64,000 bases of DNA from Candidatus Nanohalarchaeota archaeon (GTDB lineage: Archaea > Nanohalarchaeota > Nanosalinia > Nanosalinales > Nanosalinaceae), in contig JALDAJ010000001.1 of NCBI GenBank assembly GCA_022729235.1, forward strand, positions 62,001-126,000, in the 5' to 3' direction. This document shows positions 11,341 through 37,798 of the stretch, in pieces. The notes under the pieces are model-generated. The model was not told the origin of the DNA. It worked only from the letters and a program-made list of their open reading frames with translations, and ran no database searches. Positions within the stretch are counted from its first letter, which is position 1. Each line of letters begins with the position of its first letter. The position numbers were made by a program, and so were the translations under genes.

Positions 11341-11970
11341 CTACTCGACATCCGTCCCTTCAGCGTTTTCAGGATCAGCCAGGTTCTCCAGGGTTCCCTC
11401 GAAGATTCTTGTCGGAATGTTTGAACGCCTGATTATCTTGACCGCTGTCTCATCGATCAGTTCGTAGCTTCCCGGCTCGTAGTCATCACCTACTATTTCC
11501 AGAAGTTCGTCCGGCGTCACCTCATCAAGTTTCTCCGCACCGTCTTCATCCGGGTGTTTATCGTGCACCCCGTTAACCGTAGTTGCGATGTAGAGCTCCG
11601 CATCCAGCATCTCGGCAGCGATAGCTGCGGTAGCATCAGTTGAGTATCCAGGCGTAAGCCCCCCCATCACGACATCCTTTCCGGAAGCGGCTGCTACCTT
11701 GATCTCTTCAGGTCTTTCAGGTATCGAAGGATAAGCATCCATCACGGTCAGCAGAGTCTGCGCGTTCAGCCGCGTTGCCTTGATACCGACAAGGTCCTGC
11801 TCGCCGTTATTTGCAATGCCTTTGACAGCTTTCTGGTGCTTATTGAGGTCGCCTGCACCGGTAACAACCAGCACTTGCTCATCTCTTTCCAGCGCGTCCG
11901 CCAGCTCTTCTATCCTGTCAAGGTTTTCCCGTACAATCGAACCTCCTATCGAAAATACATAATCTACCAT
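11341..11970 (-). CDS. pyrH: uridylate kinase (UMP kinase)
   Basis: A 209-residue archaeal-type UMP kinase of the amino-acid-kinase superfamily. N-terminal FSIGGSIV replaces the lysine phosphate loop (lysine to serine at the usual KxGGS position), VVTGAGDL forms the second glycine loop, and GGLTPGYSTDATAAIAAEML near residue 102 and TTVNGVHDKHP are the UMP/ATP-binding signatures. It makes UDP from UMP. Start and GINS stop overlap, so it is coupled to GINS. Confidence 0.88.
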   Translation of the reverse strand: MVDYVFSIGGSIVRENLDRIEELADALERDEQVLVVTGAGDLNKHQKAVKGIANNGEQDLVGIKATRLNAQTLLTVMDAYPSIPERPEEIKVAAASGKDVVMGGLTPGYSTDATAAIAAEMLDAELYIATTVNGVHDKHPDEDGAEKLDEVTPDELLEIVGDDYEPGSYELIDETAVKIIRRSNIPTRIFEGTLENLADPENAEGTDVE

Positions 11971-12551
11971 TATTCCATCCTCTCCGCACTCCCGCGGTTA
12001 ACCAGTATCTCTGCGTTTTCCTCCGGGACCTCGACCTCATCTCCCTCGTCAAGAGGTCCGTAGCTTTCCAGGTCGGTTCCCATAAACTCAGGTACGTGAG
12101 ACGTCACTTTTATGACCTCGTATCCCTCTTCAGCACTGTCTTCGTCTTCCGCCTCTAAATCATCTTCGAATTCTTCATCCTCCTCTACCTCTCCGAGGTC
12201 GACATCCAGGTCGCCGTTCACCTCGCCGTCGATACGGTCGCGGTGCTCCTCGAAAATGCTCTTTAATTCCCGGAAAAGCTTCTTCTCTCTCGGCAGGAGA
12301 TTCAAACTTGAAGCGTTCACATCAGATTTCACCGCGAGCCGCGCGTTCTTCACTATCTTGTCCTCTCTCAGAGAAATTATCTTGTCAAACACACGTTTCG
12401 AGTTCCGGTGCTCGCGCTCATCAACATCTTTCTTTCCATCCAGGAAACTACCAACACGCAGGAGGAACTTCTCACCGAGATCAGTCAGATCATCTTGGCG
12501 AGCCTCGCTCTTCTGCATCTTCCGCAACTCCTGAAACGTTAACTCCTCCAT
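11970..12551 (-). CDS. GINS complex subunit (Gins15/51 type)
   Basis: 193 residues. The N-terminal helical A domain covers about 1-105, with a LRxAVKSDVN segment and LLPREKKLFREL helix. An acidic linker (about 110-140) leads to the C-terminal B domain with FMGTDLESYGPLDEGDEVEVPEENAEILVNRG, the pattern of archaeal Sld5/Psf1-like GINS proteins. It is a scaffold of the CMG-like replicative helicase with MCM and GAN/RecJ. In many archaea GINS is adjacent to the primase and PCNA genes; here 3.8 kb of other genes intervenes. Confidence 0.88.
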   Translation of the reverse strand: MEELTFQELRKMQKSEARQDDLTDLGEKFLLRVGSFLDGKKDVDEREHRNSKRVFDKIISLREDKIVKNARLAVKSDVNASSLNLLPREKKLFRELKSIFEEHRDRIDGEVNGDLDVDLGEVEEDEEFEDDLEAEDEDSAEEGYEVIKVTSHVPEFMGTDLESYGPLDEGDEVEVPEENAEILVNRGSAERME

Positions 12552-12612
12552 GAGCCGTGGTTTAGTTGAAAGATTTTTATCTGGGTCGCTTTAGGATAGC
12601 CAAAAGTTAAAA

Positions 12613-12636
12613 AGTATAAGCAATAATATAGTATTG
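12613..12636 (+). promoter_or_regulatory. TATA box and operator-like repeat of first toxin-antitoxin operon
   Basis: AGTATAAG at 12613-12620 lies about 25 nt before the ATG at 12642, so the transcript is probably leaderless. It is followed by an interrupted inverted repeat, CAATA at 12621-12625 and TATTG at 12632-12636, a plausible site for autorepression by the ribbon-helix-helix antitoxin. Confidence 0.5.
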
Positions 12637-12641
12637 GAAGT

Positions 12642-12863
12642 ATGACAACAACTGTCGATCTACCGAGCGAAATCGAGAAGGCTATAGAAGAGAAGATCGA
12701 GGGAGGAGAGTACACCAGCAAGTCAGATTTCGTGAAGGAGGCGGTGAGGACGCACCTAGACAAGATACTTCTAATCCCTGAAGATGTATCCAGGAGAGCT
12801 GAAGAAGTTAGGAAAGGTGAAGCTGAAACAGTTGAATGGGAAGAAGTCAGGGAAGACATGTAG
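12642..12863 (+). CDS. ribbon-helix-helix antitoxin (ParD/CopG-like)
   Basis: 73 residues: MTTTVDLPSEIEKAIEE forms the DNA-binding beta strand and first helix of a ribbon-helix-helix dimer, and SKSDFVKEAVRTHL is the second helix. The acidic C-terminal tail should bind the toxin encoded 3 bp downstream. Likely a transcriptional autorepressor. It shares its N-terminal design with the antitoxin at 30592. Confidence 0.82.
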   Translation: MTTTVDLPSEIEKAIEEKIEGGEYTSKSDFVKEAVRTHLDKILLIPEDVSRRAEEVRKGEAETVEWEEVREDM

Positions 12864-12865
12864 AC

Positions 12866-13171
12866 ATGGAGTTCGAAGTTCACTCTAAAGCGGTTGAAGA
12901 ATTTCTGGAGCTCCCTGGAGAAGACCGCGAGAAAGTGAAGGAGAACATCGACTCCCGGCAGAGAAGAGAGAACAGCATCCTCAATCAGCGAGGCACAGGC
13001 ATCAGCTACGACAACCACGGAGAACCTGTCCACTACTTCAAGGCGGAAGGAGAAAACCAGAACTACAGGGTTTTCTTCGACATCCAAGACGACACAGTAA
13101 TCCTGCTAGGCGTCAGACCACGAGACGACGATACCTACCTCAACCTCCGAGAATACACCAAGAGAACCTGA
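12866..13171 (+). CDS. RelE/ParE-type toxin
   Basis: 101 residues from the ATG at 12866, directly after the antitoxin stop. MEFEVHSKAVEEFLELPGED is a typical N-terminal strand and helix of the RelE/ParE fold. HYFKAEGENQNYRVFFDIQDD and the VILLGVRPRDDDTY end form the antiparallel sheet. Expected to act on ribosome-bound mRNA or gyrase; the residues visible do not settle which. Operon arrangement supports the pair call. Confidence 0.75.
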   Translation: MEFEVHSKAVEEFLELPGEDREKVKENIDSRQRRENSILNQRGTGISYDNHGEPVHYFKAEGENQNYRVFFDIQDDTVILLGVRPRDDDTYLNLREYTKRT

Positions 13172-13225
13172 AAACACCTTTTACCCAGGTCAATTCCTTT
13201 CTCCGGTGCAGGAGAGACTTGAACC

Positions 13226-13278
13226 CTTATCACGGTTAATTTACTAAACCAGCCACGAATTGCCGGTTTAATAAACGG
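13226..13278 (+). repeat. 53-bp direct repeat, copy 1
   Basis: Matches the copy at 14654-14706 without gaps. The first 24 bases and the last 13 are identical; the central 16 differ at roughly half the positions. Each copy contains an internal inverted repeat (TTTACTAAAC and GTTTAATAAA arms). The two copies bracket the JAMM-like and transglutaminase-like genes. Could be attachment sites, operators or terminators. Confidence 0.8.
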
Positions 13279-13372
13279 CTGATGGTTGTGAAATACGGTT
13301 TTTCAGCCTTTAATTCTTGATTTTTAGGTTATAACCATTAAACTTTTAAGTTGTGAGGAGTAAGTAACAAAT

Positions 13373-14023
13373 ATGACTGAATTGTCTAAGACAACAGTTT
13401 ATATTCCTGAAAAAATCCATAGTTATCTGAAGTTTGAAACTCAGCAGGATGCTGAGAATCAAGGAGTTTTAGTTTACAGAGAACATCCAGGAGCAGATAA
13501 TGAAGACGATATTTTCATCGAATACAAGCTACCTACAGGCAGAGGTACTCCGGGAAGAGTGGAACCACAGCAGGAGAAGTTAGATGTTTTACATCAATTC
13601 ATGGAAGATAATCCTGAATACAGAGGAATTGTATACCATACTCACTCGGAAGGAACTCTTGAGGAGTTCGGAGAAATTTACGGTCATAACTTTTCGCCAG
13701 GAGATATGCCTCAGATTAGTAGTGAGAAGCCTTCAGGTTATGAAGATTGGGAACTTTTGGTTACTCCGGATTGGATTTTATCTTCGGAGGAATGGCAAGA
13801 ACTAAGTGGTTCCTATAATGGAAGACACAATTTCATCAGTGAGGAAGAACTCGAAAGGGCGCACGAGGAAGGAAGAGGAAAGCCAGAAGTTGTTATATCT
13901 GATTGGAGCATGGATGACGGAACACCATTCATGCCTGAAAATCCTGGAACAGATGAATCAGTCTGGGGAGATGTCAGGTCAAAACTAGGTCAAGCAAGAA
14001 AAAAAGCTACAGAAGGAGTATAG
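13373..14023 (+). CDS. JAMM/JAB-like metalloprotease domain protein
   Basis: 216 residues. An N-terminal DAENQGVLVYRE strand carries a candidate catalytic Glu28. GIVYHTHSEGT supplies the HxH zinc ligands (His89, His91), and SPGD (Ser108 to Asp111) supplies the SxxD part. This is the JAMM motif, but the gap between HxH and SxxD is 16 residues rather than about 7. JAMM proteins cleave isopeptide or C-terminal ubiquitin-like tails, or act as plain peptidases. The gene begins after a GAGGAG ribosome-binding site and is followed 10 bp later by a putative cysteine protease. More AT-rich than its neighbours. Confidence 0.6.
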   Translation: MTELSKTTVYIPEKIHSYLKFETQQDAENQGVLVYREHPGADNEDDIFIEYKLPTGRGTPGRVEPQQEKLDVLHQFMEDNPEYRGIVYHTHSEGTLEEFGEIYGHNFSPGDMPQISSEKPSGYEDWELLVTPDWILSSEEWQELSGSYNGRHNFISEEELERAHEEGRGKPEVVISDWSMDDGTPFMPENPGTDESVWGDVRSKLGQARKKATEGV

Positions 14024-14033
14024 AGGGATTATT

Positions 14034-14618
14034 ATGTCGGGAGATTTTGGAGACTCACTCAAAGAATTCTCTTTTATTGAACATGATATTGAGCCGGGTA
14101 AAACGCTTTCCGGCGGGTTAGGAGCTGAAATAAGGTATGATGAGAGAAGTCCTGATGTAGTCGAAGAACATTTCGATACTGATACAGAACCCGGGGATGA
14201 AATATTTAATCACTTCACAAACGATAGAGGAAATTACCATAGTATTGAGGAACAGGGAATCTCAACTGACAAAGACGGGAACCCGCTCTTTTCGGAATTA
14301 GTTGAAGAAGAGGTTGGCGAGTGCCTTGAGATGGCCTTAGTAGGATTAAACTATGTACAAGATGACTTTGATGAAGTATATCTGGTAAACGGTTCCTTAC
14401 CTGATACTGACCAACTTAATTACAAAGTTCCAGAACACGCATACCTGATTTTAGAGGATGAAAAAGGTTATGAAGTATTCGACCCGGCAAGACTGATTGG
14501 TAATGAGCCAGTTCGGGGCAGAATAGTAGGAATAGGCGACTCCAATACTCTAGAACTTGAAAGCGATGTACAGGAAGATTTTGAATCTGCATTTGGACAA
14601 AAATATTCGCTTCAATAA
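14034..14618 (+). CDS. transglutaminase-like cysteine protease fold protein
   Basis: 194 residues. GECLEMALVGLNYVQ contains Cys97 at the start of a helix, PEHAYLIL contains His135 on a strand, and YEVFDPARL contains Asp150. Cys-His-Asp in this order and setting is the transglutaminase/papain-like triad. The N-terminal 60 residues are acidic and unrecognised. It follows the JAMM-like gene by 10 bp, and the two form an isolated bicistron between the 53-bp repeats. Substrate unknown. Confidence 0.58.
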   Translation: MSGDFGDSLKEFSFIEHDIEPGKTLSGGLGAEIRYDERSPDVVEEHFDTDTEPGDEIFNHFTNDRGNYHSIEEQGISTDKDGNPLFSELVEEEVGECLEMALVGLNYVQDDFDEVYLVNGSLPDTDQLNYKVPEHAYLILEDEKGYEVFDPARLIGNEPVRGRIVGIGDSNTLELESDVQEDFESAFGQKYSLQ

Positions 14619-14653
14619 ATTAATTGGTTCTATGGGCTTCGGTGTGCGGAACG

Positions 14654-14706
14654 CTTATCACGGTTAATTTACTAAACTAGTCGTGATTTGACAGTTTAAT
14701 AAACGG
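14654..14706 (+). repeat. 53-bp direct repeat, copy 2
   Basis: Second copy of the repeat at 13226-13278, in the same orientation and directly after the protease bicistron. It retains the internal inverted repeat, with a different central spacer. It lies at the 3' end of the minus-strand gene starting at 15344. Confidence 0.8.
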
Positions 14707-14708
14707 TT

Positions 14709-15344
14709 CTATGATGATTTTTGTGGCTGTTCAGCGCCTAAAAGTTGATTCCACAGATTAGACAGGCGGGTTGTGATAGTCTTCCAAATATCATGTCTTC
14801 GTTTGTATAATTCTGCCAGTTGTTCTACTACATTGATTTCGAATTTTATCTTGATGGCTGTAAATGAAATAGGAATCAGAACTAAAATTGAGATGACTAT
14901 TGATATAGACAGGTAAACTATGTTTACAGACCTTTGAATTACTGGAACCACAATATCATATTCGCGAATATTTCTGACTGACAATGTTCTTTCAACTTCA
15001 TCTTCTAACTCCTCGATTTCTTGCTCCTGATTTTCTATCAGTTCCGACTGGTTCTCACTTTTTTCTTCATAATAATCCGCTTGTTCTCGTAAGTCACTTC
15101 TGTTATCGCTGTAGTTACTGGCGACTGCTTGGTAATGTTCTTTTTCAGACTGCAGTTGCGATATTGTACTTTCAAGTTCATTTATTTCAGCTTCTAAACT
15201 TGATATGTCCTCCTCGTACACCTCTTCATCTACTGTATCGGCGTTTATTTGTTGAAACATGGAAGGTACTACGGAGAGTATCCCTACAACAAGTATAGCT
15301 ACTGCTATACCTGTACACGCAGTTACTATATCGTCTTCTGTCAC
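14709..15344 (-). CDS. membrane protein with coiled coil between two transmembrane segments
   Basis: 211 residues. A transmembrane helix at about 10-30 (IAVAILVVGILSVVPSMF) is followed by a long coiled coil (about 45-120, Leu/Ile heptads with many Glu and Gln), a second hydrophobic segment at about 140-170, and a basic C-terminal tail. This topology suits a sensor or tether spanning the membrane. No family recognised. It belongs to the AT-richer island. Confidence 0.6.
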   Translation of the reverse strand: MTEDDIVTACTGIAVAILVVGILSVVPSMFQQINADTVDEEVYEEDISSLEAEINELESTISQLQSEKEHYQAVASNYSDNRSDLREQADYYEEKSENQSELIENQEQEIEELEDEVERTLSVRNIREYDIVVPVIQRSVNIVYLSISIVISILVLIPISFTAIKIKFEINVVEQLAELYKRRHDIWKTITTRLSNLWNQLLGAEQPQKSS

Positions 15345-15375
15345 ATAGAATTTCTGGGTCGCAAATATTATCTGT

Positions 15376-15657
15376 TTAATCTAATTCGGATTGGAAATAC
15401 TCTTCGTAACCCAGATTCGCTATTAATCCTTCTAAATTCAGGTCTAAATCTTCAATATTGTTTTCGGGATTAATTTTGTCTTCTTCAATTTCTTCTTCCG
15501 TTAAAAATGCGGTATTGTCTATTTCGGCTATATTGGTTGCTAGTTCTTGTCTATCTACTTCTTTTTCGGGTATTTCTTCAATGATATTCTGATATAGTTC
15601 GGTCTTTCTGGTTGCTATTAGCCCAATCATGTTGAGCGCCTGTTCTTCTTTCTCCAT
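15376..15657 (-). CDS. hypothetical acidic protein
   Basis: 93 residues, helical and acidic, no cysteines, no membrane segment. The end of the upstream gene at 15657 shares one base with its ATG, so translation is probably coupled. No family recognised. Its functional partner is likely the Cys-motif protein encoded directly upstream. Confidence 0.5.
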   Translation of the reverse strand: MEKEEQALNMIGLIATRKTELYQNIIEEIPEKEVDRQELATNIAEIDNTAFLTEEEIEEDKINPENNIEDLDLNLEGLIANLGYEEYFQSELD

Positions 15658-16202
15658 TATGCCACCTCAAGCGCCGTTTTACTTACTTCGGCAGAACCAG
15701 TCGTTAAGGCTTCTTTAGTACTCCCTTCAAGCATTTCTCCAAATACTTCTTCATCTACTGTATCGTTGGTAGTGTCTGCTAGATATTCAAGTCCGCCAGA
15801 ATCTTCTACGCTATTCCTCAAGTCTTCTGCAATTTCGCCCGCCTCTTTTTCTGTGATTTTACTCGCTTGAAATGCGACACCTTGTTGTTTTGTTTCTTCT
15901 ACTAAATTGCTGAATCTATCAGAGGAATCTGAGTCACTCCATGCGTCATACATTCTTTTTCCGGCTTTTCCAGTAGTGTAAGCAGTGTATGCTGTAGCAA
16001 GATGAGGATTAGTAGAAGCCACTCCGCCTAAAACCATTGCTTTACCGACTGTTTTAGCTGAATCCTTTACATCTTCCTCCGAAATACTATCTTCGGAACC
16101 AGAAAACCCTGCATCTTCCGGATGTAGTGCGCCGTTACAGCTACATTGACACTGACTGGCTGGCATTTTTACAGCATTCTCACAACGAGGACTGTGCGAC
16201 AT
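15657..16202 (-). CDS. hypothetical protein with N-terminal Cys/His cluster
   Basis: 181 residues from the ATG at 16202 (MSHSPRCENAV). Residues about 7-27 contain Cys-x8-10-Cys-x-Cys-x-Cys-x5-His (PASQCQCSCNGALH), which looks like a compact metal-binding knuckle. A glycine/alanine-rich region around 60-90 (GKAMVLGGVASTNPHLATAY) could insert in or cross a membrane, and the remainder is amphipathic helix. Not assigned to a family. First gene of a three-gene minus-strand unit in the island. Confidence 0.55.
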   Translation of the reverse strand: MSHSPRCENAVKMPASQCQCSCNGALHPEDAGFSGSEDSISEEDVKDSAKTVGKAMVLGGVASTNPHLATAYTAYTTGKAGKRMYDAWSDSDSSDRFSNLVEETKQQGVAFQASKITEKEAGEIAEDLRNSVEDSGGLEYLADTTNDTVDEEVFGEMLEGSTKEALTTGSAEVSKTALEVA

Positions 16203-16295
16203 AGAACCCCCTCCCAATAAATTGAATATTAGAAGGAATATCTAATGTATTTTTTCCTATTCAAAATTTCTCAAGAGTTCCGACAAAATTACTAT

Positions 16296-16379
16296 TTATC
16301 TCAACGCTTCCTTGATATGCTCCTGTTTAACCGTCTTGTACCCGTTTTCTTGTGCGATTGCCCGGGCTTCCTCCACGAT
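16296..16379 (-). pseudogene. histone-fold-like in-frame fragment after the primase stop
   Basis: Directly after the primase TGA, the same frame stays open for 27 codons to a TAA. The translation contains VEEARAIAQENGYKTVK followed by QEHIKEALR. This closely follows the second half of archaeal histones: end of helix 2, a KTV loop, and a D/E-x-I-x-x-A-(L/V)-(K/R) helix 3. AAA+ lid domains of LonB type are a weaker alternative. There is no upstream histone half in any frame. It is either a truncated gene or a C-terminal extension reached by stop readthrough. Confidence 0.45.
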
Positions 16380-17795
16380 TCAACCAAAACATTTCTGGAC
16401 GTGTTTCTTGTAGTAGTGTTCCATCTGGTATTCTTTGCCGCAGTACGGGCATTCAAAGACCTCGTCTTCCTCGTCGTCTCCAGATTCTCCGTCTGAGGAG
16501 TTGCCGATGTCGAGGCTGTCGTCGCCTTTGGCTTTGCGGAAGGCGTAGGAGACGGGGTTGGGGACGCGTTCTTCCAGGCTGTCGCCTTCGTAGACCTGCA
16601 TGTCTTTGTAGTAGCCTTTCGCGTCGTAGTTCGGTGGCGGGACGTCCTCTTCCCTGTCGCGGTGCCAGTTGAGCTGTCCCCTGACATATGATTCGCGGAG
16701 CGCCTGGTCGTTCTCCTCGTTCCACTCCCAGATACGTGATTCGATTTCCTCCCAGCTGTAGCCTACTGTTCTCAGGAAGTTGATGAGTATGAACAGTCCG
16801 CGCTTTCTGCCGTCTTCCAGCCCGTCGAGTATGTTGTGGATGGTAGGAGGCCAGTGCTCCTCCGGTATCGCGTCGTCGGGTCTGTCAAAGTCTTTCTCAG
16901 CCCGCTCCTTTCTCCTCGCCTGTTTCTTCCTCTCCTCCTCCGCAACGTTTTCCGCCGCCTGCAGTAGAAGGTTGGTGGCTTCTCCCTCCTCGTATTCTTC
17001 CAGGAACGTCGTCTCGAAGTCTATGCTGTCCATCTGCGCGTCGCTTTTCTCGAAGTCCTGGATCTGCGAGGGTTGGATGGGCAGGGATACTAGCCAGCTC
17101 CCGTCGTGCAGTGAGTAGGGCATGCGGAAGAGGTGGCGCTGTCCCCAGTCGTTTTCTATGTCGGCGACCTGGTACGGGTCCCAGCCGGTGTCGACTTTCA
17201 TATCCTCCTCGAAGCCGTATTCGCGGACGAGGTCTTTCATCTCGTTTTCGAGGTTGTCCCGTATGTATTCGATTATTCCTCTCGGGAGTTTTGGATACAG
17301 CGAGGCAACGTTTTCCCCGCGGAATATCTCCGGGACATCCTCGCCTTCGAGCGTGTCGGGAAACGCCTCCCACCGCACTCCTATGTGGAAGCCTCTGTTG
17401 CCGGAGAACTTGACACTGACGTTTTCTATACCGTGCTCACGCAGTTCTCTCACGACGAGTTCCGCGGTGTCTTTCGCGAGTTCAAACGAGTGGTCACAGT
17501 CGATGTCGATGACGAAGTCCCAGCCCTCGCGCAGGTCGTCAAGGTTGTTGACGTTGTCGATGAGTAGCGGGTTCTTCCAGCGCTCGACCGACGAGTGTAA
17601 CGCGACCGCGCCGTCCTCGACTAACTGTGAGAAGTCCCCCGGAAAGTTGATAGCGTCCGGCCGTTTCCCATAACCGTTCGGATATGTCGGCGCTATCTCC
17701 CTATACTCCGCGACAGAAGTGATGTGTTCGGAGACCTCTTCCTGCTGGTAGTACTGTCTTATCTTCCAGTCCTGCGGCTTTTCCCCTTCTCCCAT
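16380..17795 (-). CDS. archaeal DNA primase, PriS-PriL-like fusion with C-terminal zinc finger
   Basis: 471 residues. Residues about 1-260 are PriS: the metal-binding FVIDIDCDHSFE (near 93-104) and KFSGNRGFHIGV are the catalytic signatures. Residues about 310-420 resemble the PriL C-terminal domain (PPTIHNILDGLEDGRKRGLF, then a helix and a Y-x-RGQLNWH block). The four Fe-S cysteines expected there are absent. The last 25 residues form a C2HC-like finger, ECPYCGKEYQMEHYYKKH plus a terminal Cys. Single-chain primases are known in several DPANN archaea (established). It synthesises replication primers and shares an operon with PCNA. Confidence 0.88.
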   Translation of the reverse strand: MGEGEKPQDWKIRQYYQQEEVSEHITSVAEYREIAPTYPNGYGKRPDAINFPGDFSQLVEDGAVALHSSVERWKNPLLIDNVNNLDDLREGWDFVIDIDCDHSFELAKDTAELVVRELREHGIENVSVKFSGNRGFHIGVRWEAFPDTLEGEDVPEIFRGENVASLYPKLPRGIIEYIRDNLENEMKDLVREYGFEEDMKVDTGWDPYQVADIENDWGQRHLFRMPYSLHDGSWLVSLPIQPSQIQDFEKSDAQMDSIDFETTFLEEYEEGEATNLLLQAAENVAEEERKKQARRKERAEKDFDRPDDAIPEEHWPPTIHNILDGLEDGRKRGLFILINFLRTVGYSWEEIESRIWEWNEENDQALRESYVRGQLNWHRDREEDVPPPNYDAKGYYKDMQVYEGDSLEERVPNPVSYAFRKAKGDDSLDIGNSSDGESGDDEEDEVFECPYCGKEYQMEHYYKKHVQKCFG

Positions 17796-29763: not shown

Positions 29764-29899
29764 CTAACTTCCTCCTCTACGAACTACTTCTCCATCGAAC
29801 TATTTAAGCATAACTTTGAGACAGTCAAGGGAGTGATAGGGAATAAAAAAGATTACACAGAACAGGGAATATACAAAGCCAAACAAGACCAAAAAGCCT

Positions 29900-29952
29900 G
29901 AAGTGCGTTCGTCTTACGAACGTGCTATGTTGATGAAACTGACAGCAGTTTC
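29900..29952 (+). repeat. structured RNA element, copy A (before tRNA-Val)
   Basis: Two consecutive hairpins: 29903-29911 pairs with 29917-29925, and 29935-29940 with 29947-29952. The element aligns without gaps to 30234-30286, with 42 of 53 positions the same. Three base pairs differ by compensating changes in both partners (29912/29916, 29935/29952, 29936/29951). It ends exactly one base before the tRNA-Val gene. Confidence 0.75.
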
Positions 29953-30027
29953 GGGTTCGTAGTCTAGCTTGGTTATGACACCGCCTTGACATGGCGGAGA
30001 TCCCCAGTTCAAATCTGGGCGAACCCA
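29953..30027 (+). tRNA. tRNA-Val (GAC)
   Basis: A complete cloverleaf: acceptor GGGTTCG pairs with CGAACCC, anticodon stem CCGCC/GGCGG holds loop TTGACAT (anticodon GAC), and T arm CCCAG-TTCAAAT-CTGGG. Discriminator A at 30027. CCA is not encoded. No intron. It is preceded directly by a structured element related to part of the next tRNA's intron. Confidence 0.93.
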
Positions 30028-30089
30028 TACGGGCGATGATATGAGTCCAACGGGAAGGTAGCTCAGGTGGTAAGAGCGCTGCGCTCATA

Positions 30090-30292
30090 ACAACTTTATG
30101 AGCGATGAGGGTCACTGTCTCGCCATGCGTGACAGTTCGAGAAGATCACATCGTTCTTTAAAGAACGATGTTCAAACACCGTTTCCCGAAAACGGTGTGT
30201 CTCTGATCTTCGACCCGATGATTAAAACATCTTGAAGTGCGTTCGCTTTGCGAACGTGCTATGGTGATCGAACTTCCAGAAGTTCGTGAGAT
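30090..30292 (+). other. large structured tRNA intron
   Basis: 203 nt. The intron start pairs with the anticodon loop (30084-30090 with 30096-30102). A helix (30137-30148 with 30204-30213, two-base bulge) encloses a perfect 22-bp palindrome at 30149-30170 and a 9-bp hairpin (30076-type arms at 30176-30184 and 30190-30198). The 3' part is the copy B hairpin element. GTGAG at 30286-30290 can pair with CTCAT of the anticodon loop, consistent with a bulge-helix-bulge splice substrate. Confidence 0.75.
30234..30286 (+). repeat. structured RNA element, copy B (3' part of tRNA intron)
   Basis: Second copy of the element at 29900-29952, at a constant offset of 334 bases. Hairpin arms are 30237-30246 with 30250-30259, and 30269-30275 with 30280-30286. 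It ends six bases before the 3' exon of the CAT tRNA. Confidence 0.75.
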
Positions 30293-30334
30293 ACGCAGAG
30301 GTCGCGGGTTCGAGTCCCGCCCTTCCCATTTCTG

Positions 30335-30591: not shown

Positions 30592-30822
30592 ATGGGAACG
30601 ACTACTGTTGATATTCCTGAGGCACTGGAGAATGGTATCGAAAGAGAACTTGAGAGAGGTAAGTATGCTTCCAAGTCCGAGCTTATCAGGGCGGCTATAA
30701 GAGCGTTTCTAGAGCAGGAGGATATGATTGTTGAGAGAACTCTTTCAGAAAAAGCAAAGGCTAGAATTGAAGAGGCTAGAGAACAGGACGACAGTGTTTC
30801 ACACAGAGAAGTATTCAGTTGA
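30592..30822 (+). CDS. ribbon-helix-helix antitoxin
   Basis: 76 residues: TTTVDIPEALENGIERELER is the ribbon and first helix, and ASKSELIRAAIRAFLEQ the second helix. The acidic tail should wrap the toxin. It resembles the antitoxin at 12642 in the first 40 residues, so the two are paralogous or share a family. The toxin begins 8 bp downstream. Confidence 0.82.
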   Translation: MGTTTVDIPEALENGIERELERGKYASKSELIRAAIRAFLEQEDMIVERTLSEKAKARIEEAREQDDSVSHREVFS

Positions 30823-30829
30823 TTAGAGA

Positions 30830-31102
30830 ATGATACCTATAGAGTATAAACCTGTAGCACAGTCAAGCATCCAAGATTTGGATGAAGAAGTCAGAGAAAT
30901 TATAGAAGAGAAGATAAAGGAAGTAAGAGAGAACGGAATCTTCAAGCACAGGAATGTTGGCATAGTTCACGATGAAGAATGGGGAGAAATATGGAGGATT
31001 AAAGCGAAGAACGCCATCGCTAACCATAGAGTGTTCTTCGATATACAGGATAACAAGATGGTCGTACTTGATGTTCTGCACAGAGATATCGCATATGACT
31101 AA
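30830..31102 (+). CDS. RelE-type toxin
   Basis: 90 residues with a RelE/ParE fold pattern: N-terminal YKPVAQSSIQDLDEEVREII helices, then GEIWRIKAKNAIANHRVFFD and KMVVLDVLHRDIAYD strands. The conserved arginine in the WRIK strand and the C-terminal HRD resemble RelE mRNA-interferase residues. It lies in one operon with the antitoxin. Confidence 0.78.
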   Translation: MIPIEYKPVAQSSIQDLDEEVREIIEEKIKEVRENGIFKHRNVGIVHDEEWGEIWRIKAKNAIANHRVFFDIQDNKMVVLDVLHRDIAYD

Positions 31103-31166
31103 ATGACAGAATTTCGTTACAACATTTACCATCTGAAGAAATCATGTCTTTTGTTTAGTAGCTCTC

Positions 31167-36187: not shown

Positions 36188-37798
36188 TTACTGGAGCACT
36201 CTTTCATCCCCGAACTCGTCTACATAGTGAACATTTCCGTCGATCCAGGCTGTCCCGGTATTCGCCGATGGACTGCTTCCAGTGGCTGCTCCATGATATC
36301 TTCTCTTATCTCCGTTCTGGTCTATCCAGTAGAAGTATTCTCCATCTATCCATGCGTGACCCTTACTACCGGTGTGACCTGAAGACTCCACATTGTTCTC
36401 GTTTATTATCCAGTACTCGGTGCTTCCATCCGTCCAGTGGAACGCATCTCCTTCAATCCATGCCATCCCCGGATCAGCCTCGCTGTTGGATTTAGTATCA
36501 CGCTGCATGCATGGACAGTCGTTCGTTTCACATGGTTCAGACTCAGTATCTGTGTACGTGTCAGAGTCACAGCTACCGCCGCTGCAACCCTTATAATCAG
36601 TACACTCCCCGTCCCTAGACATGGAGCCGTCATCATCACAGTACCAGTCACCCCAGTCATCACACTCCTCATCGGTACGGCAGGTCTCTACTGTATAAGT
36701 GTTCGTTCCTGTACAGCTTGTCGAAGTACAATCACCACCGTCACACCCTGTGTAATCAGTGCCTGTGTTCTCCTCATCCTGGACAACATCATCACCATCA
36801 CAGTAAGGATCACCAGTATCCTCCCAACTACACGTATCACCAGTAGAACACGAAGAACCATCATCAACCCAACGAGTCTCAGTAGAAGTATCTTCCTGGC
36901 ATGACCCGCCGCTACAACCCTCATAATCAGTACAACTACGCTCCTGCTCCTTTATCGGCTGATCACCGTCACAACTTGTCGCACCCGTATCACTCCAGGA
37001 ACCACAGTCCTCACCTGTAGGACACGACTCTACAGTGATCGTCCTACTACCACTGCAGCTTGTCCAAGTACAACTACCGCCGCTGCAGCCCGTGTAATCA
37101 GTGCCTGACTCCTCTTGATCCTGGACAACATCATTACCATCACAGTACTCGCTACCATCATCCTCCCAACTACACGTATCACCAGTAGAACACGAAGAAC
37201 CATCATCAACCCAACGAGTCCCGCTGCAGCTTGTTGAAGTACAGCTACCGCTACTACAACCAGTGTAATCAGTACCTTCATACGACTGCTCCTTCTGAGG
37301 CTGATCACCGTCACACCTCGTCGCACCTGTATCCTCCCAACTACAAGTATCACCAGTAGGACATGACTCGCTGCTGTAATCGCAGTAGCCGCCGCTCGAA
37401 GAACAGCTCCAGTCCCCGTTATACAGCCGTGTATCTCCATCACACGTGTCATCACAGCTCTGATAGTCATCCGAACTACCCCATTCACAGGTCCAGCCGC
37501 TCGAGGTACAGTCAGCCGAGCCATCATAATAACAGGTACCCATACCATCCATCTGATAGTCGCAGTCAGGATAATCACTGTCCTGACCGCTGTAATCACA
37601 TTGCTCTTCCATCTGATTACAGACACCGTCGTAGTAACAGGTCATCGAACCATCGACGTAAGTATCACAATCATAATCTGAACCACAAGTATTACCCCAG
37701 CCTGCAGAAACACCGGAAACCAGAGATAGTACCAATAGAGACAGAAGTATTGCAGATATAAGTAGTCCGCCAGGCAACCTGGTTTTCACGGCTGCCAA
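36188..37798 (-). CDS. secreted Cys-rich repeat protein
   Basis: 536 residues. A signal peptide (about 1-32) leads to a small Cys-rich region (about 38-140), then five tandem repeats of about 56 residues (about 145-425) with a TGDTCSWEDTG, CDGDD, GTDYTGC and GSCTSTSC pattern in two alternating subtypes, and a C-terminal part with three beta-hairpin units such as AWIDGEYFYWID. Very rich in Cys, Asp, Ser and Gly, and almost free of Lys. Likely a disulfide-locked surface stalk or adhesin. Overlaps the upstream gene by 13 bp. Confidence 0.85.
   Translation of the reverse strand: MAAVKTRLPGGLLISAILLSLLVLSLVSGVSAGWGNTCGSDYDCDTYVDGSMTCYYDGVCNQMEEQCDYSGQDSDYPDCDYQMDGMGTCYYDGSADCTSSGWTCEWGSSDDYQSCDDTCDGDTRLYNGDWSCSSSGGYCDYSSESCPTGDTCSWEDTGATRCDGDQPQKEQSYEGTDYTGCSSGSCTSTSCSGTRWVDDGSSCSTGDTCSWEDDGSEYCDGNDVVQDQEESGTDYTGCSGGSCTWTSCSGSRTITVESCPTGEDCGSWSDTGATSCDGDQPIKEQERSCTDYEGCSGGSCQEDTSTETRWVDDGSSCSTGDTCSWEDTGDPYCDGDDVVQDEENTGTDYTGCDGGDCTSTSCTGTNTYTVETCRTDEECDDWGDWYCDDDGSMSRDGECTDYKGCSGGSCDSDTYTDTESEPCETNDCPCMQRDTKSNSEADPGMAWIEGDAFHWTDGSTEYWIINENNVESSGHTGSKGHAWIDGEYFYWIDQNGDKRRYHGAATGSSPSANTGTAWIDGNVHYVDEFGDERVLQ

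What the first reader, a model, noticed from the sequence alone, without database searches (positions are those of the whole stretch)
13226..14706. JAMM-like and transglutaminase-like protease pair between 53-bp direct repeats
A candidate zinc isopeptidase (HxH...SxxD) and a candidate cysteine protease (Cys97-His135-Asp150) form an isolated two-gene unit bracketed by near-identical repeats. JAMM and papain-like proteases are known partners in prokaryotic ubiquitin-like and phage-related systems. No ubiquitin-like, E1 or E2 gene is next to it. This may be an undescribed mobile protease cassette, perhaps defensive.
Basis: partly seen in the sequence, partly recalled or inferred. Interest (0 to 1): 0.75.

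Follow-up and report, generated by a model that had tools for sequence, protein, structure and literature searches.

The report
Mobile two-hydrolase gene cassette in archaeon
A small archaeal genome carries a foreign, repeat-bounded pair of genes for two probable protein-cutting enzymes, inserted between two core replication genes, and the repeats look like the scars left when mobile DNA integrates at transfer-RNA genes.

Summary
The two ORFs and flanking direct repeats exist (repeats 58 bp, 86% identical). The first protein is a real, divergent JAMM: relatives in three same-family genomes keep E, HxH, S and D, and their joint profile matches bona fide Prok-JAB proteins (hhalign 83%, E 9e-6). 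The second protein has no relative found; its Cys-His-Asp order and spacing fit transglutaminase-like hydrolases, but profile and fold tests were inconclusive. The pair is not isolated: it lies in a low-GC 3.8-kb island (RHH-ParE pair, cassette, three unknown ORFs, histone-gene remnant) between PriS and GINS, which abut in 15 of 16 same-family genomes examined. The repeat recurs at one other locus, bracketing different cargo, and there ends in the exact 3'-terminal 23 nt of the neighbouring tRNA-Pro; the window copy ends in the only tRNA T-loop (GGTTCAANTC) of 64 kb. I read the repeats as tRNA-type attachment scars of small non-autonomous integrated cassettes. In relatives the JAMM is the variable C-terminal domain of coiled-coil proteins sharing an N-terminus with a phosphoesterase, an effector-like architecture. 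No ubiquitin-like, E1 or integrase gene was recognised in the island. Conflict or effector function is the best guess, not shown.

The parts
12552..16379 (.). Low-GC island between GINS (11970-12551, -) and PriS (16380-17795, -)
   Evidence: PriS and GINS are 52-92 bp apart (aligned ends) in 15 of 16 same-family genomes with both on the locus, 635 bp in the 16th; GC 0.39-0.41 for JAMM, TG and m1-m3 against 0.51 and 0.56 for GINS and PriS
12642..13171 (+). RHH antitoxin-like (12642-12863) plus ParE-like toxin (start taken at 12863)
   Evidence: Pfam RHH_1 1.8e-5; ParE_toxin 0.0051, below its cut-off
13203..13226 (-). tRNA 3'-end-like tail of repeat copy A
   Evidence: Holds the only GGTTCAANTC (tRNA T-loop/box B) of the 64-kb window, both strands; no resident tRNA matches it exactly
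13221..13278 (.). Direct repeat copy A
   Evidence: 86% to copy C elsewhere in the genome
13373..14023 (+). JAMM/JAB-like metalloenzyme, 216 aa; E28, H89, H91, S108, D111
14034..14618 (+). Probable transglutaminase-like cysteine hydrolase, 194 aa; C97, H135, D150; no relative found
   Evidence: triad spacing C-H 38, H-D 15, inside the 34-46 and 14-16 seen in 19 archaeal Transglut_core domains; no relative
14649..14706 (.). Direct repeat copy B (lacks an intact T-loop tail; flanked by a 9-bp GGTTCTATG repeat)
14709..16217 (-). Three ORFs of unknown function, called m1-m3 (211, 93, 186 aa), within the island, outside the A-B unit
16299..16379 (-). 27-codon histone-fold C-terminal remnant, in frame after the PriS stop
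   Evidence: Pfam CBFD_NFYB_HMF 2.2e-4 and LonB lid 3.8e-5; 59% identical to a stretch elsewhere in this genome

Best explanation
A horizontally acquired, non-autonomous integrative cassette. Its boundary repeats are decayed attachment sites of an element family that recombines at the T-loop/3' end of tRNA genes: the same repeat, abutting tRNA 3' ends, brackets different cargo at a tRNA-Pro locus of this genome. The cargo is a two-gene operon for a JAMM-fold metalloenzyme and a probable transglutaminase-like cysteine hydrolase. Most likely they are accessory conflict enzymes: stand-alone versions of effector-type catalytic domains that cut or modify proteins (the JAMM possibly nucleic acid) during competition, host-symbiont interaction or defence. 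Shown: foreign island, repeat family, tRNA scar at copy D, JAMM membership through relatives, JAMM as variable C-terminal domain in relatives. Inferred: site-specific recombination, transglutaminase-like chemistry, joint action, conflict role.
For: PriS-GINS spacing in relatives and low GC. Repeat family at a second locus around two small ORFs; copy D equals the last 23 nt of tRNA-Pro(GGG) about 0.85 kb away on the same strand. Copies A and C also run into GGGTTCAANTC. JAMM: relatives with E/HxH/S/D; hhalign of the 4-sequence alignment against 28 Prok-JAB proteins prob 83, E 8.9e-6, score 40 against at most 16.6 in 60 column shuffles. JAMM proteins in G001/G017 share an N-terminal region with a neighbouring phosphoesterase-type protein (30% over 143 aa, 8e-10). 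TG triad spacing.
Against: The window JAMM alone does not match Prok-JAB above shuffles. TG: hhalign 1%, 18 of 2000 shuffles score at least as well against an HMM, poor model (pLDDT 38.5), no transglutaminase fold in Foldseek or VIA rows. No tRNA lies at this locus, copy B lacks the T-loop, no integrase was recognised in the island, and the repeat was not found in 59 other genomes. No immunity gene recognised. No defence-library match.
Confidence: 0.5

Rival explanations
1. The repeats are short dispersed elements (MITE-like or regulatory, two 11-bp near-palindromes GTTTAnTAAAC 27 bp apart) that happen to flank the operon; the pair is ordinary foreign cargo and A-B is not a mobile unit.
For: Copy B carries a 9-bp flanking direct repeat like a target duplication and no T-loop tail; only three full copies and one partial copy in the genome.
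Against: A 9-bp match in such flanks arises in 368 of 20000 random placements. Copies A, C and D all end in a tRNA T-loop, D in an exact 23-nt tRNA end.
Confidence: 0.25
2. Remnant of an archaeal virus or plasmid: JAMM plus papain-like enzyme act in particle or tail assembly, as the JAB and NlpC/P60 domains of phage tail proteins do.
For: That phage fusion is described in PMC1779556 (passages read).
Against: No match in 50,697 phage and 72,556 plasmid records or in viral-contig scans; no structural virus gene recognised in the island.
Confidence: 0.12
3. Ubiquitin-like deconjugation pair: JAMM removes and the cysteine protease matures a Ubl encoded elsewhere.
For: JAMM and papain-like enzymes are known Ubl-directed peptidases (PMC1779556, passages).
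Against: No Ubl, E1 or E2 recognised in the island and none named by Pfam, NCBIfam or PADLOC for the scanned neighbours of the relatives' JAMMs. Genome-wide beta-grasp search not run.
Confidence: 0.08

Closest known systems
JAMM/MPN+ (Prok-JAB, PF14464) metallopeptidases
   Same: E-x-x-G, HxH, S-x-x-D; profile-profile match of the 4-member family
   Different: Window sequence alone has no Pfam hit; 26-27% identical to its nearest relatives over the alignment
Tox-JAB-2 / DUF4329 (PF14220), JAB toxin domains of polymorphic toxins
   Same: E, H[ST]H, S, D as described in PMC3482391 (passages); relative in G001 hits DUF4329 weakly, 0.0034, below cut-off; variable C-terminal position in relatives
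   Different: Window copy is stand-alone, paired with a cysteine hydrolase; no immunity gene recognised; the paper's listed taxa for this clade name no archaea in the passages I read
Transglutaminase-like hydrolases (Transglut_core, PF01841)
   Same: C-(38)-H-(15)-D, GxCxExA and HAY...FDP
   Different: No significant profile match
Non-autonomous tRNA-integrated elements (tRNA 3'-fragment scars; the general kind is recalled knowledge)
   Same: 23-nt tRNA-Pro 3' end at copy D, repeat-bounded cargo
   Different: No tRNA at the window locus; no integrase recognised in the island
Lambda-type tail protein K (JAB + NlpC/P60)
   Same: JAB plus papain-like pairing (PMC1779556, passages)
   Different: Separate genes, transglutaminase-like rather than NlpC/P60 motif, no tail genes recognised

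Membership tests
JAMM/JAB superfamily | Glu, HxH, Ser, Asp motif in order | tested here: met
   motif in 6 of 200000 shuffles of the protein
JAMM/JAB superfamily | Profile similarity to known members | tested here: met
   4-sequence alignment against 28 of 30 fetched Prok-JAB loci (2 dropped as short): prob 83, E 8.9e-6; window sequence alone not above shuffles
JAMM/JAB superfamily | Deaminase-like JAMM fold | tested here: inconclusive
   single-sequence model pLDDT 32
JAMM/JAB superfamily | Zn-dependent isopeptidase activity | not testable with these tools
   needs protein
Transglutaminase-like | Cys-His-Asp triad with family spacing | tested here: met
   C-H 38, H-D 15; loose motif in 198 of 200000 shuffles and in 2 of 603 ORFs, one of them itself
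Transglutaminase-like | Profile similarity | tested here: inconclusive
   hhalign prob 1%, though it places C97 on the catalytic Cys; 18 of 2000 shuffles reach its HMM score
Transglutaminase-like | Papain-like fold | tested here: inconclusive
   pLDDT 38.5; model too poor for the searches to count
tRNA-integrated element | Boundary copy of a tRNA 3' end | tested here: met
   copy D, 23 nt identical to tRNA-Pro; at the window copy A only a T-loop-like tail
tRNA-integrated element | Intact target tRNA beside this island | tested here: not met
   only ARAGORN tRNA of the window is tRNA-Val at 29953; no Rfam tRNA in 12500-15500
Autonomous integrative element | Own integrase | tested here: not met
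   no recombinase among the seven island ORFs scanned against Pfam; elsewhere in the genome not searched
Polymorphic toxin (Tox-JAB-2/DUF4329) | E, H[ST]H, S, D | tested here: met
   definition from PMC3482391
Polymorphic toxin (Tox-JAB-2/DUF4329) | DUF4329 profile at cut-off | tested here: inconclusive
   window 0 hits; G001 relative 17.8 bits against 28.6
Polymorphic toxin (Tox-JAB-2/DUF4329) | Shared N-terminus with variable C-terminal domains | tested here: not met
   seen in relatives G001/G017, but the window protein is a stand-alone domain
Polymorphic toxin (Tox-JAB-2/DUF4329) | Adjacent immunity gene | tested here: inconclusive
   none recognised; most immunity families are absent in archaea according to PMC3482391
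Prokaryotic Ubl systems | Ubl/E1 gene next to JAB | tested here: not met
   (island only)

The most novel reading that the evidence does not exclude
A small-genome archaeal lineage uses an integron-like cassette system: exchangeable one- or two-gene units bounded by a common recombination site derived from tRNA 3' ends, shuttling conflict genes, among them a new JAMM plus transglutaminase-like two-enzyme effector or defence module.
Probability: 0.12. Interest if true: 0.75.

Novelty: new variant of a known kind. Interest (0 to 1): 0.42.

Why it matters
It would link divergent archaeal JAMM domains, whose role outside ubiquitin-like systems is open, to mobile conflict genes in a reduced-genome archaeal lineage, and it gives two defined repeat-bounded units (A-B and C-D) on which cassette excision can be tested directly.

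Tried and rejected
Pfam, PHROGs, NCBIfam and PADLOC gave no hit for either protein; PDB sequence searches gave none, and the JAMM profile found only an unrelated ribosomal protein at E 0.55. Scans of viral contigs, genome contigs, phages and plasmids found no relatives. AlphaFold single-sequence models were too poor to use; Foldseek and VIA-align on the second protein's model listed no transglutaminase or papain fold and nothing of note. Rfam found no RNA family at the repeats. I considered that the repeats are split-tRNA 3' halves or regulatory sites; the T-stem does not pair in copies C and D (by eye), so a functional tRNA half is unlikely. The 27-codon histone remnant is not a copy of a gene held elsewhere in this genome at DNA level. 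Literature: full-text searches for JAMM with Nanohaloarchaea, JAMM with DPANN, nanohaloarchae- with transglutaminase and nanohaloarchae- with polymorphic toxin showed, in listings and the passages read, no description of this pair; most subscription papers are not held, and the mBio 2019 paper on archaeal polymorphic toxins could not be read.

Full report
Setting. The window is bases 62001-126000 of a single-contig 1.03-Mb genome. Replication genes (PriS, GINS, by sequence family knowledge), intron-rich tRNAs and acidic proteins (D+E above K+R) suggest an archaeal halophile with a reduced genome, probably nanohaloarchaeal; the name is my inference.

Observation. The two ORFs (13373-14023 and 14034-14618, +) and the repeats (13221-13278, 14649-14706; 58 columns, 86%) exist. 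A 23-bp exact core occurs twice in the window and never in 100 shuffles. The reading frames score best by codon usage of neighbouring core genes (JAMM -4.14 against -4.20 for the next frame, TG -4.06 against -4.34), GC3 is about 0.31 against 0.53-0.64 in four core genes, and acidic residues outnumber basic ones as in those genes.

The island. GINS (11970-12551, -) and PriS (16380-17795, -) are separated by 3.8 kb here. One search covered 28 genomes and found GINS in 26, own included. Among 16 same-family relatives with GINS, PriS lies beside it in all 16: 52-92 bp between aligned ends in 15, 635 bp in one (G010, with an 88-aa ORF). Of 9 further genomes, 4 have the two adjacent and 5 show no PriS in the stretch held. 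GC is 0.39-0.41 in JAMM, TG and the three ORFs m1-m3 against 0.51 (GINS) and 0.56 (PriS); the RHH-ParE pair is 0.49. The island holds that pair, the A-B unit, the three unknown ORFs and a 27-codon histone-fold remnant after the PriS stop. It is an insertion, and the site has taken an insert at least once more.

The repeats. Besides A and B, the genome holds copy C (553829-553893) and a partial copy D (554785-554807); the pattern CGTGATAAGNGTTC matches exactly at these four places only. C and D bracket two small ORFs (73 and 93 aa; the second is DUF4870). On the minus strand the order is AGCCGT, 45 bp, GATAA, then in A, C and D GGGTTCAANTC. D lacks the 45 bp between two CCGT words. D continues into GGGTTCAAATCCCAGCCCTGCCA, the exact last 23 nt of tRNA-Pro(GGG), which lies on the same strand about 0.85 kb away with an RHH-ParE pair between. 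A continues into a T-loop-like tail, the only GGTTCAANTC in 64 kb; no resident tRNA matches A or C tails exactly. B has no T-loop. This is the layout left by elements that recombine at tRNA 3' ends, here as tandem units with different cargo. Against it: no tRNA at the window locus, no integrase recognised in the island, and a 9-bp repeat around B, which chance gives in 368 of 20000 placements. The repeat was not found in 59 other genomes; three partial matches of at most 20 bp looked like chance.

JAMM. By sequence, 5 of 149 genomes searched (own included) have a match; one of the four others (G086) is weak at E 0.005 and probably chance. With the alignment, 5 of 394 genomes searched (own included) match: the three clear relatives (G001, G007, G017, the last with a second, partly N-masked copy) and one weak hit with stops (G045). 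All four aligned members keep E28, G31, H89, H91, S108 and D111. Profile-profile comparison of these four with 28 Prok-JAB proteins from relatives gives probability 83, E 8.9e-6, score 40.1 against at most 16.6 in 60 column shuffles, aligning the Glu and the HxH to the catalytic ones. The window sequence alone does not do this (score 18.3, best shuffle 18.5; 122 of 2000 shuffles reach its HMM score), so membership rests on its link to G001 (33% over 100 aa, 1e-10), whose JAMM ranks first of all sequences in the HMM test at 5.8e-4.

Second protein. No relative in 149 genomes, phages, plasmids, viral or genome contigs. GECLEMA...EHAYLILEDEKGYEVFDP gives C97, H135, D150 with spacings 38 and 15; 19 of 29 archaeal Transglut_core domains match the same loose pattern, with spacings 34-46 and 14-16 (one of 30 loci was dropped as short). 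The pattern occurs in 198 of 200000 shuffles and in one unrelated ORF of about 600. hhalign was not significant (1%; the best of 60 shuffles scored higher) though it puts C97 on the catalytic Cys. The model is unreliable; its helix carrying C97 followed by strands carrying H135 and D150 is the expected order, no more. I put transglutaminase-like at about 0.75 (judgement).

Function. In G001 and G017 the JAMM is the C-terminal domain of proteins whose N-terminal part is shared with a neighbouring protein that, in G001, has a weak calcineurin-like phosphoesterase match further on (30% over 143 aa, 8e-10; 0.0023, below cut-off), beside a conserved membrane protein (46%). Shared N-termini with exchanged C-terminal enzymes are the hallmark of polymorphic toxins, in which JAB (Tox-JAB-2, DUF4329; motif E, H[ST]H, S, D) and transglutaminase domains are both described (PMC3482391, passages). 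The authors suggest such JABs may act as nucleases. The N-termini are coiled-coil rich, so part of that similarity may be compositional. The window pair would be a stand-alone cassette version. In G007 the JAMM is also stand-alone. No TG-like motif ORF was found in the fetched stretches around the relatives' JAMMs. Conflict role: my best guess, about 0.45 (judgement); not shown.

Novelty. Known ingredients, new combination and setting. The paper searches named in Tried and rejected showed no description of the pair. Hence new variant of a known kind.

Noticed in passing
window 16299-16379 (-): 27 codons in frame after the PriS stop encode a histone-fold C-terminus: debris of a truncated histone-like gene, not seen between PriS and GINS in the relatives displayed.
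   Followed up: partly
window 12642-13171, about 30592-31103, and L015 9872-10414: Three RHH-ParE pairs in this genome, one beside repeat A, two beside tRNA genes; ParE of the first and second 40% identical over 73 aa.
   Followed up: partly
window 29891-29950 and 30225-30284: 80% direct repeat; one copy directly before tRNA-Val, the other, by eye, inside the long intron of a tRNA gene at about 30054-30329 that ARAGORN missed.
   Followed up: partly
L084 (G010), about 2130-2748: A different insert of about 0.6 kb with an 88-aa membrane-like ORF at the same PriS-GINS site.
   Followed up: partly
L016 1481-5044, L017 9163-12030, L172 8692-9657: Effector-like loci: shared coiled N-terminus, exchanged C-terminal domains (JAMM, calcineurin-like; a RamC_N match inside one JAMM protein), conserved membrane protein, tRNA-Thr nearby in two.
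   Followed up: partly
window 36648-37366: Repeats with 171-bp spacing (57 codons).
   Followed up: no
tRNA genes of the genome (L028-L048): Many tRNA genes span 105-191 bases, suggesting frequent long introns.
   Followed up: no
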